From Streptomyces californicus (GTDB lineage: Bacteria; Actinomycetota; Actinomycetes; Streptomycetales; Streptomycetaceae), in NCBI RefSeq assembly GCF_000717645.1, contig NZ_JNZZ01000013.1:62001-126000 (forward strand): 64,000 bases of DNA, in the 5' to 3' direction. The position numbers and the translations under genes are program-made. The notes beneath the pieces are model-generated. The model was not told where the DNA came from. It did not search any database and saw nothing but the letters and a program-made list of their open reading frames with translations. Shown here piece after piece: positions 52,625 to 58,565 of this stretch (position 1 is the stretch's first letter; the number at the start of each line of letters is the position of its first letter).

Positions 52625-53029
52625 TCACAGCCCGATGACGGTGACCGAGTGCTCCAGTCCCTTGAAGTCGTCGGGGTTGCGGGTGAAAAGCGGCAGGCCC
52701 CGGACCGATGCGATGGACGCGATCATCAGGTCCATACGGCGCGGCCGGGGGTCGCGCCGGGCCGCGACAACGAGAGCGGCAAGGGTTCCGTACCGTGCGG
52801 CGGCGTCCCCGTCGAAGGGCAGCGGTTCGAAGTCCGCCACGGCCGCGCCCAGCTTCTCCATCCGGGCCGCCCGGACCAGCGGGTCCCTGGCCATGGCCAC
52901 ACCCTGCTGGAGTTCGGCCAGGGAGACCGCCGTCAGGGCGGGCAGCATGGGCAGCCGCTCCGGCTCCAGCAAGCCGAGGTCGATGTACGTACAGGTGTCA
53001 AGCACTCCCGTGCGGTGCCGCTCAGCCAC
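52625..53029 (-). CDS. PIN-domain toxin (VapC-like ribonuclease)
   Basis: This 134-residue PIN nuclease has the acidic metal-binding residues in place: Asp11 (LDTCTYID), Glu39 (SLAELQQG), Asp100 (RRMDLMIAS) and Asp120/121 (TRNPDDF). The GTG at 53029 overlaps the antitoxin end by eight bases (GTGGCTGA), so expression is coupled. It is predicted to cleave RNA when freed from its antitoxin. The longer open frame upstream is the antitoxin gene out of frame. Confidence 0.9.
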   Translation of the reverse strand: MAERHRTGVLDTCTYIDLGLLEPERLPMLPALTAVSLAELQQGVAMARDPLVRAARMEKLGAAVADFEPLPFDGDAAARYGTLAALVVAARRDPRPRRMDLMIASIASVRGLPLFTRNPDDFKGLEHSVTVIGL

Positions 53030-53300
53030 CGTCGCGCCCCCACGCATCGTCGTCACCGACCCGGTCCTCCGTGCCCAGGAACTCGTCCGCCTCACGGCGC
53101 AGCAGGCCGCTGTCCACCTGCGGCAGTCGACGGTGGCGAGCCACGAGTTCCTCCGCGCCAAGCTGTCGCTTGCGGTTGAGCGGGCGCAATTCAGCGACCT
53201 CTACGCCGTTCCGGGTGATGTGAAAGGTCTCCCCCGCCTCCACGGCGTCCATGACCTCGGCGGACTTGTTGCGGAACTCCCTCTGCGTGATGGTCTTCAT
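53022..53300 (-). CDS. Phd/YefM-family antitoxin
   Basis: This 92-residue antitoxin starts MKTITQREFRNKSAEVMDAVEAGETFHITRNGVEVAELRPL, the classic Phd/YefM DNA-binding and dimer domain. The acidic C-terminal half (about 55-92) should wrap the toxin. The ATG at 53300 is six bases from a -10 box, so the transcript is probably leaderless. It presumably represses its own promoter through the palindrome at 53307-53337. Confidence 0.92.
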   Translation of the reverse strand: MKTITQREFRNKSAEVMDAVEAGETFHITRNGVEVAELRPLNRKRQLGAEELVARHRRLPQVDSGLLRREADEFLGTEDRVGDDDAWGRDGG

Positions 53301-54104: not shown

Positions 54105-54191
54105 ACGGCCCGGCCCAGTCACTTAACCCGGTTTCAACAAGAAAGGGGCACTATGGGAGGCAGGTGAGAGGTGAGCTGTTGGGAGGCACCG

Positions 54192-55100
54192 ATGCCACGA
54201 GCCCGTTCGCGCTATGCCCCGGACCGGGGCCTGACCGGCCGCATGGTCACCACCATGTTCCTGATCGGCCTGCTCTACGTCGTCTTCGTGGGCGTGCTCC
54301 TCGCGGCCCTGCGGGGCTCCTGGCCGATCATCCTGATCATCACGGGCGGCATGTTCGTCGCCCAGTTCTGGTTCAGCGACCGGATCGCCGCCTACGGGAT
54401 GGGGGCTCGCGAGGTCACCCCCGAACAGGCCCCCGAGCTGCACGGCACCATCGACCGCATCTGCGCCCTGGCGGACATGCCGAAGCCCCGGGTCGCCATC
54501 GCCGAGAGCGACGTACCGAACGCGTTCGCCACCGGCCGCAGCGAGAAGACCGCCCTGGTGTGCGCGACGACGGGACTGCTGCGCCGGCTGGAGCCGGAGG
54601 AGCTGGAAGGGGTCCTCGCCCACGAGATGTCGCACGTCACGCACCGGGACGTCGCGGTCATGACGATCGCCTCGTTCCTCGGCGTGCTGGCGGGCATCAT
54701 CACCCGGATCGCCCTGTGGGGCGGGTTCGCCCGCAGCCGGCCGGGGAACGACCCGGCCGGCATCCTGCTCCTGCTCATCCCGCTGATCAGCGCCGTCGTC
54801 TACGCGATCAGCTTCCTGCTGACCCGGCTGCTCTCCCGCTACCGCGAGCTGTCCGCCGACCGGGCCGCCGCCCTGCTCACCGGGCGCCCCTCGGCGCTCG
54901 CCTCGGCCCTGACGAAGGTCAGCGGGCAGATGGCCCGCATCCCGACGGAGGACCTGCGGAAGGCGGAGCCGTACAACGCTTTCTACTTCCTGCCGGCGTT
55001 CTCGGCGAAGGAGTCGCTGGGGCGGATGTTCTCCACGCACCCGACGCTGGAACAGCGCCTGGACCAGCTCTCCCGCATCTCCACCGACCTGTCCCGCTGA
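54192..55100 (+). CDS. htpX: Membrane zinc metalloprotease HtpX
   Basis: This M48-family endopeptidase of membrane-protein quality control has 302 residues. It has two N-terminal helices (MVTTMFLIGLLYVVFVGVLLAAL and WPIILIITGGMFVAQFW), zinc motif HEMSH (144-148), two further helices (ASFLGVLAGIITRIAL and ILLLLIPLISAVVYAISFLL), and the downstream zinc ligand Glu in YRELSADRAAA. ATG 54192 has GGGAGG six bases upstream. It is followed after 37 bases by pspAB, the usual actinobacterial pairing. Confidence 0.94.
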   Translation: MPRARSRYAPDRGLTGRMVTTMFLIGLLYVVFVGVLLAALRGSWPIILIITGGMFVAQFWFSDRIAAYGMGAREVTPEQAPELHGTIDRICALADMPKPRVAIAESDVPNAFATGRSEKTALVCATTGLLRRLEPEELEGVLAHEMSHVTHRDVAVMTIASFLGVLAGIITRIALWGGFARSRPGNDPAGILLLLIPLISAVVYAISFLLTRLLSRYRELSADRAAALLTGRPSALASALTKVSGQMARIPTEDLRKAEPYNAFYFLPAFSAKESLGRMFSTHPTLEQRLDQLSRISTDLSR

Positions 55101-55137
55101 ACCGTCCGCACCATCGAGCCTTGGAGGAGTGAAGCCC

Positions 55138-55725
55138 GTGGGCCTGCTCGACGCGATCCTGGGCCGGAGCAAACCGGTCCGCCCCGACCTCGACCAGCTC
55201 TTCGCCGTCCCGTCCGCCGCCCTCACCCTCCAGGCCGCCACCGGCTTCACCCCGACCGGGCGGGGCTCGGTCTGCTTCGCAGGCGTGGAGGGCGGCGGTT
55301 TCGCCCGGCTCCAGGAGGACGTACGGGAGCTGCTGGACGCGGACACGGAGCGCGGCGGCATCCCGGTGGAGTTCAGCCGGGACGCGTACGGCTACACCTG
55401 GCTCCTGGCCACCCACCCGGCCGACGACACGGCGAGCCTGGTCAACGACCTGCACGCGGTGAACACGCTCCTCCAGGACGGCGGCTTCGGCCCGCACCTG
55501 CTCTGCTCGCTGATCGGCTTCCGCCACCCGGCGGACGGCCGGTCGCTGGCGCTGGTCTACCTCTACAAGCGCGGCACGTTCTACCCGTTCGCCCCGCTCC
55601 CCGGCGACGCGGAGAAGCGCGACAACCCACGCGAACTCCAGGTCCGCGGCGCCCTCGGCGACGACCTCCGCGTGGAGAAGGACCTGTCCCGGTGGTTCCC
55701 GGTGTGGGGGGCGCCGGGGCTGTGA
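55138..55725 (+). CDS. pspAB: PspA-associated protein PspAB
   Basis: This 195-residue protein matches the PspAB family usually found after htpX: GLLDAILGRSKPVRPDLDQLFAVPSAALTL at the start, YGYTWLLATHPADDTASLVNDLHAVNTLLQDGGFG in the middle, and FYPFAPLPGDAEKRDN near the end. It is linked to envelope stress (phage-shock-like) responses. GTG 55138 is chosen because GGAGGAG is well spaced for it; another GTG at 55129 is too close to that site. Confidence 0.9.
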   Translation: MGLLDAILGRSKPVRPDLDQLFAVPSAALTLQAATGFTPTGRGSVCFAGVEGGGFARLQEDVRELLDADTERGGIPVEFSRDAYGYTWLLATHPADDTASLVNDLHAVNTLLQDGGFGPHLLCSLIGFRHPADGRSLALVYLYKRGTFYPFAPLPGDAEKRDNPRELQVRGALGDDLRVEKDLSRWFPVWGAPGL

Positions 55726-55750: not shown

Positions 55751-56968
55751 TCACCAGCGGACCGGAACCTTCCGCTCCCCCTGGGCGAAGAGCCCGGAGA
55801 ACCGGCCCCCCGACCTCCCGTCCGGGCCGAGCGTCGGGCAGCGGGAGAGGAGGGTACGGAAGACGATGCGCCCTTCGAGGCGCGCGAGCGGGGCGCCCAG
55901 GCAGTAGTGGACACCGTGACCGAACGCCAGGTGGCCCCGGTCCCCGGTCCCCGTACGGCGGATGTCGAAGCGGCCCGGTGCGGTGAAGCGGGCCGGGTCC
56001 CGGCCGGCGTCCCCCAGGACGATCAGGACCACGGCACCCGCGGGCACGTGCCGGCCGCCGATCTCCACCGGCTCCACGGCCACACGCGGCGGCGCGGTCT
56101 CCACCGGGGCGTCGTAGCGCAGCATCTCCTCCACCGCACCCTCCACGAGGGCGTCCAGGTCGCTGCGGAGGAGGGCGAACTGGTCGGGGTGGGCGAAGAG
56201 CGCGCGGACGCCCTTGCACAGGAAGTTCACCGTGGACTCGTGCCCGGCCAGGAGCAGCAGGAGCGCCGTCGAGAGCAACTCGTCCTCGCTCATCCGGTCC
56301 CCGCCCTCGTCGACCGTGTGGATCAGGTCGCTGAGCAGGTCGTCCGCCGGTGCCGCTCGCTTGGCGGCGATCAGCCCGCCGAGATACGGCACCGCCTCCG
56401 CCTGCGCCGCCCGCGCCGCCTCGGCGCCGGTGGGTGCGGTGATCTCGTCGGACCACCCCCGGAAGGCGTCCCGGTCCAGGTCCGGAATGCCGAGCAGTTC
56501 GCAGATGACGGTCATCCGCAGCGGGTAGGCCAGCGCTTCCACGAGGTCGGCTCGGCGGTCCTCTGCGGCGAGCATGGCGGTCACCAGCGCGTCGGTGACG
56601 TCCTGGATGTGCGGGACGAGAGCGGCGACGCGGCGCGGGGTGAAGGCGCGGGCGACCAGCCGCCGCAACCGGGTGTGGTCCGGCGGATCGCTCAGCAGCA
56701 TGTGGGCGTTGCCGGGGCCGTCGGTGGCGGGCGGGGCTTCGAGACCGGTGGCCAGGTGCCCGTTGCGCGGCCAGTCACGGCTGAGCCGGGGGTCGGTGAG
56801 CGCCTCCCGGCAGGCGTCATGGCCGACGACGAGCCAGAACCGGTCCTTCTCCCCCGCACGGATCTCGTGAACAGGCCCTCTGGCCCGCAGCACGGCATAG
56901 GCGCGATACGGATCGGAACCGAAATCCGGATCGATGTCGAGGAGATCGACTGCGGCCGGTTCCGTCAC
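55751..56968 (-). CDS. Cytochrome P450 (CYP105/107-like)
   Basis: This 405-residue haem monooxygenase has the standard bacterial class I pattern. The I-helix AGHEST (241-246) has an intact acid-alcohol pair, the K-helix ExxR is EMLR (281-284), and the haem loop FGHGVHYCLG has Cys356. The N-terminus has no membrane anchor. GTG 56968 has GGAG seven bases upstream; the frame is open a little further (to 57019) without support. It is divergent from the short peptide gene at 57147 with a 178-base shared region, so it may belong to the same natural-product locus. Substrate unknown. Confidence 0.92.
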   Translation of the reverse strand: MTEPAAVDLLDIDPDFGSDPYRAYAVLRARGPVHEIRAGEKDRFWLVVGHDACREALTDPRLSRDWPRNGHLATGLEAPPATDGPGNAHMLLSDPPDHTRLRRLVARAFTPRRVAALVPHIQDVTDALVTAMLAAEDRRADLVEALAYPLRMTVICELLGIPDLDRDAFRGWSDEITAPTGAEAARAAQAEAVPYLGGLIAAKRAAPADDLLSDLIHTVDEGGDRMSEDELLSTALLLLLAGHESTVNFLCKGVRALFAHPDQFALLRSDLDALVEGAVEEMLRYDAPVETAPPRVAVEPVEIGGRHVPAGAVVLIVLGDAGRDPARFTAPGRFDIRRTGTGDRGHLAFGHGVHYCLGAPLARLEGRIVFRTLLSRCPTLGPDGRSGGRFSGLFAQGERKVPVRW

Positions 56969-57146
56969 AACAGCTCCCCCTGACGGGTTCGGACGGGACC
57001 GTTCGGATCGCCCGGCCACTTTATCCCGTCAACTTTTCTGCCGTGATGGTGAGTTGTTGAAACTTTTCCCGTAACTCTGTTTATCAACAGCACCCTTTGG
57101 CTATGCCTCAGACCGTTGCTGTTCCCCGTGACAGAGGAGGCGTCCG
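56969..57146. promoter_or_regulatory. AT-rich divergent control region between a P450 and the peptide gene
   Basis: The 178 bases are unusually AT-rich for this chromosome, with several T/A runs (57020-57090). A short dyad CTGTTTATCAACAG and a possible TTTATC-N16-TATGCC promoter pointing to the peptide gene are visible, but no assignment is firm. Confidence 0.4.
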
Positions 57147-57233
57147 ATGGCCAAGCGCATGCTGTACAAGGCCGCGAGCAAGCTCGGCTTCACGACCAAG
57201 GGAGCCGCCGGGGCCTACCCCTGGATCCCGTAA
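57147..57233 (+). CDS. Probable RiPP precursor peptide (28 residues, C-terminal AYPWIP)
   Basis: The 28-codon ORF starts at ATG 57147 with a near-ideal ribosome site (GAGGAGG, six bases upstream) and ends with TAA, rare in this genome. The first 18 residues are basic and amphipathic (MAKRMLYKAASKLGFTTK), like a leader. A GAAGA spacer follows, and the last residues are Tyr24-Pro-Trp26-Ile-Pro28, a short aromatic core with Tyr and Trp two positions apart. The next gene is a P450. This matches minimal P450-modified RiPP loci (biarylitide/cittilin/tryptorubin-type), where the enzyme cross-links aromatic side chains at the C-terminus. It is too short for standard ORF calling. Product structure is inferred only. 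Confidence 0.75.
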   Translation: MAKRMLYKAASKLGFTTKGAAGAYPWIP

Positions 57234-57259
57234 CACCCGCAGCACGTCAGGCTTGACGG

Positions 57260-57292
57260 ACGGCCCGGCCCCGCCTGTCGGGACCGGGCCGT
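57260..57292 (+). terminator. Hairpin between the peptide gene and its P450
   Basis: ACGGCCCGG (57260-57268) pairs with CCGGGCCGT (57284-57292), and the stem can extend inwards past one mismatch. Sited after a short precursor gene and before the enzyme gene, it could act as a partial terminator or mRNA stabiliser giving more precursor than enzyme. Confidence 0.6.
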
Positions 57293-57314
57293 TCTCCGAT
57301 CCAGGGGTGTCACG

Positions 57315-58565
57315 TTGACCGAACAGACCATGCCCCGGCCCCCGGTCTCCGCGGGAGCGACCCAGGCCGGGCTGATGGAGCAGTACGAGAAGGACCGCCT
57401 CGGCCATCTCCTGGCCTCGGTCGAACGGCACGGCCCGGTGGTGGAGCTGACCGAGGGCACCGTCCTGGTGAACGACCCGGCCGCCGTCCACGACGTCCTC
57501 CGCCGCACCAACACCGACTTCCTCGTCACCGGCAACATCCGGCGCGACGAGGTCAGCGGAGTGCGCGGCGACCCGGCCACCGAGGCGTGGATGCGGGGCC
57601 GGCGCGCCACTCAGAAAGGCATGTCGCCCCCGGCGCTGGAGGCCCACCGGGCCTGGCTGACCGAGGAGACCGAACGGCTGTGCGACCGGTGGCGGGCCCG
57701 CCCCTCCGTCGCCGACCCCGTCGCCGAACTGGAACTGCTCTCCGCCCGCTCCTTCGCCCGCTTCTGCTTCGGCACCCGCGACGCCGGATCCGCCGCCCCG
57801 CGCACCGGCGACCTGCTGAACGCGCTGACCCCGCTGATCAGCAGCCCGTTCCATTTCCCGCCCGCCGTCCGCCGCTTCCTGCCCCGCTACCGCCGCTCGG
57901 TCAGCGCGCAGAAGAACCTGGAGGCGGAGCTGCGACGGGTGCTCGACGGGCCGGGCGAGGGCGGGCTCGTCGACGCACTGGCCGCCGCCGGACTGGACGC
58001 CGAGGCAACCGTACGCATGCTGGTCTCCAACGGCCTGGCCTCCTACCGGGTCCCGGCAGCCGCCGTCACCTGGGCCTTGGTGGCGCTGGCCCGCGAGCCG
58101 GAGGTCTCCGAGGAGTGCGCCGCCGCCGTGAACCCGGACGGCACAGCCGTGCCGGACATCCTGCGCTGGACGATCGCCGAATCGCTGCGCCTGTGGCCGC
58201 CCAACTGGCTGATCCTGCGTACGGCCAACGGCGAGCAGAACTGCGGCGGGTGGAGCGTACCGGCGGGTGCGGCGGTCATGATCTCGCCGTACGTCGTGCA
58301 CCGCACCGCACCGGTGTTCACCGACCCCCTGACGTTTCGCCCGCACCGCTGGGCGTCGCTCCAGCCGACCGCGGGGGAGTACCTCCCGTACGGCATCGGC
58401 AGCCGCTGGTGCGTCGGCAAGGCGCTGGCCGACCTGGAGCTGGCCACCGTCCTGTCCACCCTCGTGGCCCGGTTCCGCTTCACCGTGGACCACATGGACC
58501 CGCTGCCGGACGTGAGGACGACGCTGCTCCCGGCCCGCCTCACCCTGGGGCTACGGGCCCGCTGA
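57315..58565 (+). CDS. Cytochrome P450, probable peptide cross-linking enzyme
   Basis: This 416-residue P450 begins at TTG 57315 (AGGGG eight bases upstream; an ATG lies five codons on). The K-helix ExxR is ESLR (289-292), and the haem loop YGIGSRWCVG has Cys366 with Tyr359 in place of the usual Phe. The I-helix is highly unusual: where AGHETT-like residues are expected it reads ASYRVP (242-247), so both acid and alcohol are lost. The region after ExxR (LRLWPPNWLILRT, then ISPYVVHRTAPVFTDPLTF) groups it with CYP102/CYP120-like or terpene-type P450s rather than CYP105/107. It follows the peptide gene by 81 bases and probably modifies that peptide. Confidence 0.9.
   Translation: MTEQTMPRPPVSAGATQAGLMEQYEKDRLGHLLASVERHGPVVELTEGTVLVNDPAAVHDVLRRTNTDFLVTGNIRRDEVSGVRGDPATEAWMRGRRATQKGMSPPALEAHRAWLTEETERLCDRWRARPSVADPVAELELLSARSFARFCFGTRDAGSAAPRTGDLLNALTPLISSPFHFPPAVRRFLPRYRRSVSAQKNLEAELRRVLDGPGEGGLVDALAAAGLDAEATVRMLVSNGLASYRVPAAAVTWALVALAREPEVSEECAAAVNPDGTAVPDILRWTIAESLRLWPPNWLILRTANGEQNCGGWSVPAGAAVMISPYVVHRTAPVFTDPLTFRPHRWASLQPTAGEYLPYGIGSRWCVGKALADLELATVLSTLVARFRFTVDHMDPLPDVRTTLLPARLTLGLRAR

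What the first reader, a model, noticed from the sequence alone, without database searches (positions are those of the whole stretch)
57147..58565. Minimal P450-RiPP locus: 28-residue precursor with AYPWIP core next to a P450
A 28-codon ORF with a near-ideal ribosome site and a TAA stop encodes a basic leader-like segment and a short aromatic C-terminus (Tyr24-Pro-Trp26-Ile-Pro28). It is followed by a P450 gene on the same strand. Known P450-only RiPPs (biarylitides, cittilin, tryptorubin/atropopeptides) use this two-gene layout to form aromatic cross-links. A Y-P-W-I-P core is not one I know among described products. Leader segment KLGFTT may be a shared recognition motif.
Basis: partly seen in the sequence, partly recalled or inferred. 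Interest (0 to 1): 0.95.

Follow-up and report, generated by a model that had tools for sequence, protein, structure and literature searches.

The report
Two-P450 cassette for a cross-linked hexapeptide
A Streptomyces genome carries a tiny conserved gene for a 28-residue peptide ending in Ala-Tyr-Pro-Trp-Ile-Pro, beside a cytochrome P450 predicted to tie its tyrosine to its tryptophan and, in most relatives read, a second P450 that likely finishes the product, so it looks like an unstudied member of a recently described class of natural products.

Summary
ORF 57147-57233 (MAKRMLYKAASKLGFTTKGAAGAYPWIP) and a P450 (57315-58565) lie where stated. The ORF sits beside this P450 in all 7 distinct genomes whose DNA I could read (P450 identity 62-100%). 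The core AYPWIP is invariant and the leader nearly so, differences fall mostly at third codon positions, and flanks decay to near-random in the two most diverged. So it is very likely a RiPP precursor.

A second, ordinary-looking P450 (55751-57019, minus strand) sits beside it in 5 of the 7, including one genome with unrelated flanks where it lies on the other side. Close homologues occur in 3 of 392 genomes of the genus, all three carrying the cassette. Two cassette genomes lack it (one a fragmented draft).

Novelty is limited. A Tyr-Pro-Trp ring is known from micitide 982, and a 2025 title (paper not held) reports P450 MpoB cross-linking a YPW motif. The exact core gave no hit in the held library. 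It fails defining sequence features of atropopeptides and biarylitides. The cross-link, the second P450's role and the product are inferred; a read-through fusion fold was uninformative.

The parts
57133..57140 (+). Shine-Dalgarno-like AGAGGAGG, 6 nt before the precursor ATG
   Evidence: sequence; SD-like stretches upstream of the relatives' ORFs too, weak in L017
57147..57233 (+). 28-codon precursor gene, MAKRMLYKAASKLGFTTKGAAGAYPWIP, TAA stop
   Evidence: conserved in 7 of 7 distinct genomes read
57147..57212 (+). leader segment, residues 1-22 (cleavage site inferred)
   Evidence: conserved MAKRxL[YF][KR]AASK[LF]G[FI]T[TV]KGxxG
57213..57230 (+). core AYPWIP, residues 23-28 (boundary inferred)
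   Evidence: invariant in 7 of 7 distinct genomes; L016 adds SSR after it
57258..57294 (+). long G+C hairpin between precursor and P450, no T-run; possible mRNA stabiliser or partial terminator (inferred)
   Evidence: z -1.97; 7 of 200 shuffles fold as well; the six relatives' intergenic stretches also fold into G+C hairpins (no shuffle control there); no terminator-like site found
57315..58565 (+). P450 predicted to cross-link Tyr24 and Trp26; R-V-P where ordinary P450s have the I-helix acid-alcohol pair
   Evidence: AlphaFold2 model pLDDT 93
55751..57019 (-). second P450, usual companion, likely tailoring enzyme (the database version P0042 starts at GTG 56968)

Best explanation
The 28-codon gene likely encodes the precursor of a P450-modified ribosomal peptide: the adjacent P450 is predicted to join Tyr24 to Trp26 across Pro25 in the core AYPWIP, and the second P450, where present, would then oxidise or further bridge the ring before host proteases release it. 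Shown: the ORF, the invariant core, the conserved leader, the linkage to the main P450 in 7 of 7 genomes read and to the second P450 in 5 of 7. Inferred: that the leader recruits the P450, that the reaction is a two-electron aryl coupling (loss of 2 H) forming a small Tyr-Pro-Trp cyclophane as in micitide, that the second P450 is a later tailoring step, and that cleavage near Gly22 is by enzymes outside the cassette.
For: Conserved precursor beside the P450 in 7 of 7 distinct genomes read, P450 identity 62-100%. Coding-type conservation: codon-position differences 28/34/125, flanks decayed. Only ORF of its kind in the window. Y-x-W pair ending two residues before the C-terminus; P450s of known pathways couple aromatics one residue apart. 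The main P450 has R-V-P where the companion has the I-helix E-S-T; V-P-A is kept in 12 of 13 homologues compared. Its best NCBIfam model is the RiPP P450 ApyO, 151 bits, next 95, but under the cutoff of 525. Second P450: in 5 of 7 genomes, on the other side in a genome whose other flanking genes do not match; close homologues in 3 of 392 genomes of the genus, all with the cassette; similar divergence, r 0.95 over 8 paired genomes. Precedent for a second P450: laurentirubin B.
Against: No chemistry has been seen. The second P450 is missing from two cassette genomes (Streptomyces sp. rh34, best match 45%; G073, none at E 1e-80), so it is not essential; G073 is a 1140-contig draft whose contig ends about 110 bases after the main P450. 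The ApyO score is not specific: two terpene-type P450s of the same genome score 169 and 179 with it, though other models beat it there; four others score 38-72. The fusion model gave pLDDT under 50 for the precursor and linker. P450 relatives of 34-54% identity could not be checked for precursors. The mirror-tree fit also reflects shared strain history. In some searches only the four best first-look candidates per genome were scored.
Confidence: 0.66

Rival explanations
1. True two-gene cyptide: the precursor and main P450 suffice, and the second P450 is a neighbour with a separate role.
For: Second P450 not found in rh34 and G073, where precursor and main P450 remain; a second P450 that modifies the peptide is rare among characterised atropopeptide clusters (passage).
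Against: Linkage kept in another genomic site and orientation in L017; close homologues only in cassette genomes, 3 of 392; similar divergence of the two P450s.
Confidence: 0.3
2. The P450 modifies the core without cross-linking it, for example by hydroxylating or nitrating Tyr or Trp (RufO is a P450 that nitrates Tyr in a RiPP pathway).
For: RufO precedent (start of abstract in a search listing); the fold is an ordinary P450 fold.
Against: Y-P-W spacing equals the micitide ring; the acid-alcohol pair is gone in the main P450 while the companion keeps it, so the companion is the likelier oxygenase (inference).
Confidence: 0.15
3. The ORF is a regulatory leader peptide: ribosome arrest at Trp-Ile-Pro-stop (recalled resemblance to TnaC) governs the hairpin downstream and so the P450.
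For: Core ends in W-I-P-stop in 6 of 7 genomes and a G+C hairpin follows.
Against: L016 has SSR between the Pro and the stop; the N-terminal half is conserved too; intergenic sequence is not conserved in L016/L017 (26-31%); no terminator-like site.
Confidence: 0.08

Closest known systems
Micitide 982 (mci cluster, P450 MciB)
   Same: Tyr-Pro-Trp ring, Tyr C6-Trp C5' bond (passages on its chemical synthesis); P450-made RiPP (review section).
   Different: Its precursor and P450 sequences were not seen here, nor whether its cluster has a second P450.
MpoB, 'P450 cyptide synthase' cross-linking a YPW motif (Khan et al. 2025)
   Same: Same YPW motif by title; a P450 44% identical to ours is held from Micromonospora polyrhachis, possibly MpoB (my guess from the letters of the name).
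   Different: Only the title was seen (reference list; paper not held).
Atropopeptides (tryptorubin; laurentirubin with a second P450)
   Same: Short precursor plus P450; a second P450 has precedent in lau.
   Different: No KSLK-type leader motif, Trp not at core position 2, no adjacent aromatics.
Aminopyruvatide P450 ApyO
   Same: Best NCBIfam model; cross-links aromatics one residue apart and needs Arg (weakly Lys) five residues before the first; our Lys18 is six before Tyr24.
   Different: Score far below cutoff; no C-terminal Asp; no MNIO gene among the six neighbours tested with Pfam.

Membership tests
P450-modified RiPPs (cyptide superfamily), YPW type | short precursor gene conserved next to the P450 | tested here: met
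   7 of 7 distinct genomes read
P450-modified RiPPs (cyptide superfamily), YPW type | aromatic residues near the precursor C-terminus, Y-P-W | tested here: met
   AYPWIP in 7 of 7
P450-modified RiPPs (cyptide superfamily), YPW type | P450-installed aryl cross-link in the product | not testable with these tools
   needs expression and MS/NMR
Atropopeptides | KSLK (or RSLK, ESLK, KSRK, KPLK, PSLK) leader motif (definition read) | tested here: not met
   none of the six motifs in any of the 7 precursors (sequences, by inspection)
Atropopeptides | Trp at core position 2 | tested here: not met
   AYPWIP has Tyr at 2, Trp at 4 (core boundary inferred)
Biarylitides | pentapeptide precursor, 18 bp gene | tested here: not met
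   28 residues in 6 of 7, 31 in L016
Aminopyruvatides (ApyO) | NCBIfam NF050147 at or above 525 bits | tested here: not met
   151 bits
Three-gene cassette with second P450 | second P450 beside precursor and main P450 | tested here: inconclusive
   present in 5 of 7; not found in rh34 and G073

The most novel reading that the evidence does not exclude
A dedicated two-P450 RiPP pathway in Streptomyces makes one fixed molecule: the main P450, with its rebuilt I-helix, forges a Tyr-Pro-Trp cyclophane in AYPWIP, and a co-inherited classical P450 adds a second bridge or hydroxyl, with the core frozen while both P450s diverge by over 30%, pointing to a conserved physiological role for the peptide.
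Probability: 0.35. Interest if true: 0.62.

Novelty: new member of a known kind. Interest (0 to 1): 0.45.

Why it matters
P450-cross-linked RiPPs have precursors so short that annotation tools often miss them. This one offers a small, testable system: a fixed core, a leader with little variation, a P450 with an altered I-helix beside a normal one, and natural loci with and without the second P450, which lets the order and role of two P450s on one peptide be tested directly.

Tried and rejected
Atropopeptide and biarylitide membership: rejected on sequence features (table). Specific kinship with ApyO from the NCBIfam score: dropped to a weak hint after the control. Structure: the P450 model matches very many P450s; none of the 50 rows shown or one search is named as a peptide-cross-linking P450, which proves nothing. 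A read-through fusion of precursor and P450, which lie in one frame, was folded to look for docking; pLDDT was under 50 over residues 1-57, so it says nothing. Cassette P450 in the plasmid collection: no match at E 1e-30. Seven other P450 loci of the own genome (L002-L008, about 1.5 kb flanks): the scan gave three short ORFs with an SD-like motif and two aromatic or His residues near the end, in L006 (two) and L008 (one), none resembling this precursor by eye. The rows for L002-L008 in the alignment were read in wrong frames for most and were not used. No tRNA in the window. Literature: AYPWIP (0 papers) and YPW with P450, precursor peptide and core peptide (0 papers) in the held open-access library only; subscription papers on cyptides (Nam 2023, He 2023, recalled and cited by others) were not readable, so this family may already be listed there.

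Full report
WHAT IS THERE. The ORF at 57147-57233 encodes MAKRMLYKAASKLGFTTKGAAGAYPWIP with AGAGGAGG six bases upstream and a TAA stop; the P450 ORF follows at 57315-58565 with a TTG start. Between them is a long G+C hairpin, 57258-57294 (z -1.97, 7 of 200 shuffles fold as well), without a terminator-like site. In the 64 kb window it is the only ORF of 15-45 codons with an SD-like motif and two or more of W/Y/H, one of them W, in its last six residues.

CONSERVATION. A scan of genome contigs gave four loci with the P450 at 90-94% identity; all four carry the ORF. Of 392 genomes of the genus drawn by the tool, four, own included, have the P450 at E 1e-60 or better (only four first-look candidates per genome were scored); the two diverged ones carry MAKRMLFRAASKLGITTKGVAGAYPWIPSSR (68%) and MAKRMLFKAASKLGITVKGAVGAYPWIP (63%). 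Further, partly overlapping draws at E 1e-50: 2 of 199 relatives (own and G073), 1 of 394 in the class (own only), 2 of 394 in the family (own and G1068), 2 of 199 relatives of G297 (G297 and G073). G177's contig has the length of L009's and G1068's locus is identical to L010, so I count 7 distinct genomes: window, L009, L010, L011, L012, L016 (G073) and L017 (G297). The core is invariant in all 7. ORF nucleotide identity to the window is 86-98%, against 32-81% for 140 nt upstream and 26-90% for the intergenic stretch; shuffled upstream sequence against L017 gave a mean of 28% and a maximum of 39%. Summed pairwise differences by codon position are 28, 34 and 125 (21 pairs, not independent). 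The cassette is rare and patchy.

THE SECOND P450. The minus-strand P450 at 55751-57019 lies divergently upstream. Relatives L009, L010 and L012 keep it there at 88-91% identity. In L017, whose other flanking genes do not match the window, it lies downstream of the main P450, again on the minus strand, at 65%. Among the same 392 genomes, close homologues (E 1e-170 or better) are found in three, exactly G000, G177 and G297, all with the cassette. rh34 lacks it (best match 45%), and in G073, the fourth cassette genome, none is found at E 1e-80; G073 is a 1140-contig draft whose contig ends about 110 bases after the main P450. In the protein database (best 120 of 1986 listed) seven proteins are 67-99% identical to it, after which identity drops to 63%; one cluster holds the window's own, and three of the seven come from organisms that also hold the main P450 (S. 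uncialis, S. prasinus, S. mayteni). The other three could not be paired by name. For S. mayteni both proteins report the same longest contig length. Distances of the two P450s over 8 paired genomes correlate at r 0.954, reached by 1 of 5000 label shuffles (three pairs matched by organism name, and shared strain history contributes).

THE MAIN P450. It has the usual ExxR and heme-Cys motifs, but where the companion's I-helix reads A-G-H-E-S-T it reads A-S-Y-R-V-P; V-P-A is kept in 12 of 13 homologues compared. Its best NCBIfam model is the RiPP P450 ApyO, at 151 bits against a cutoff of 525. Two terpene-type P450s of the same genome score 169 and 179 with that model while fitting others better, and four others score 38-72, so this is a weak hint. 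The predicted structure is a standard P450 fold.

HOW IT LIKELY WORKS (inference beyond the sequence). The basic leader would recruit the P450, the core would enter over the heme, and two-electron oxidation would couple Tyr24 and Trp26 across Pro25. ApyO, which couples aromatics one residue apart, needs an Arg (Lys works weakly) five residues before the first aromatic; here Lys18 lies six before Tyr24. The second P450, with an intact I-helix motif, would oxidise or bridge further, as LauB2 adds a fourth link in laurentirubin B. Cleavage near Gly22 would be by enzymes outside the cassette. A fusion fold gave no support or contradiction.

WHAT IS KNOWN. Micitide 982 has a Tyr-Pro-Trp ring with a Tyr C6-Trp C5' bond, as read from passages on its chemical synthesis (PMC13250620 and PMC13383641). 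Khan et al. 2025 report, by title in a reference list, that MpoB cross-links a YPW motif (the paper is not held). AYPWIP itself gave no hit in the held library. Papers seen: PMC11450843, abstract, introduction, two of four parts of the results and passages; PMC13192836, two of five parts; PMC12299652, passages and one part of a section; PMC12352619, first of six parts; PMC13417212, passages; PMC13250620 and PMC13383641, passages; PMC12186263 (RufO), search listing only. Larger cyptide surveys were not readable, so prior listing of this family cannot be excluded.

VERDICT. A real, conserved P450-RiPP-like cassette, for which I found no characterisation in the held library; new, as far as I could see, in its core sequence and its usual second P450, but of a known kind.

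Noticed in passing
window 52625-53300 (-): Phd/VapC-like toxin-antitoxin pair by eye (antitoxin 53022-53300, PIN-like 52625-53161); no family search run on it.
   Followed up: no
window 54171-55722 (+): M48 peptidase followed by a PspAB gene, matched in L009-L012 but not in L016/L017; not part of the cassette.
   Followed up: partly
L017 3628-7874: Upstream of the cassette: SDR-type, phosphopantetheinyl-transferase-like and ketosynthase III-like ORFs, judged by eye; perhaps another biosynthetic cluster.
   Followed up: no
L016 7457-7549: Precursor with a three-residue C-terminal extension SSR after AYPWIP, a possible natural follower.
   Followed up: partly
window 56969-57146: Short divergent region between the second P450 (taking its start at 56968) and the precursor, so the two could share control; no sigma-70-like site found.
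   Followed up: partly
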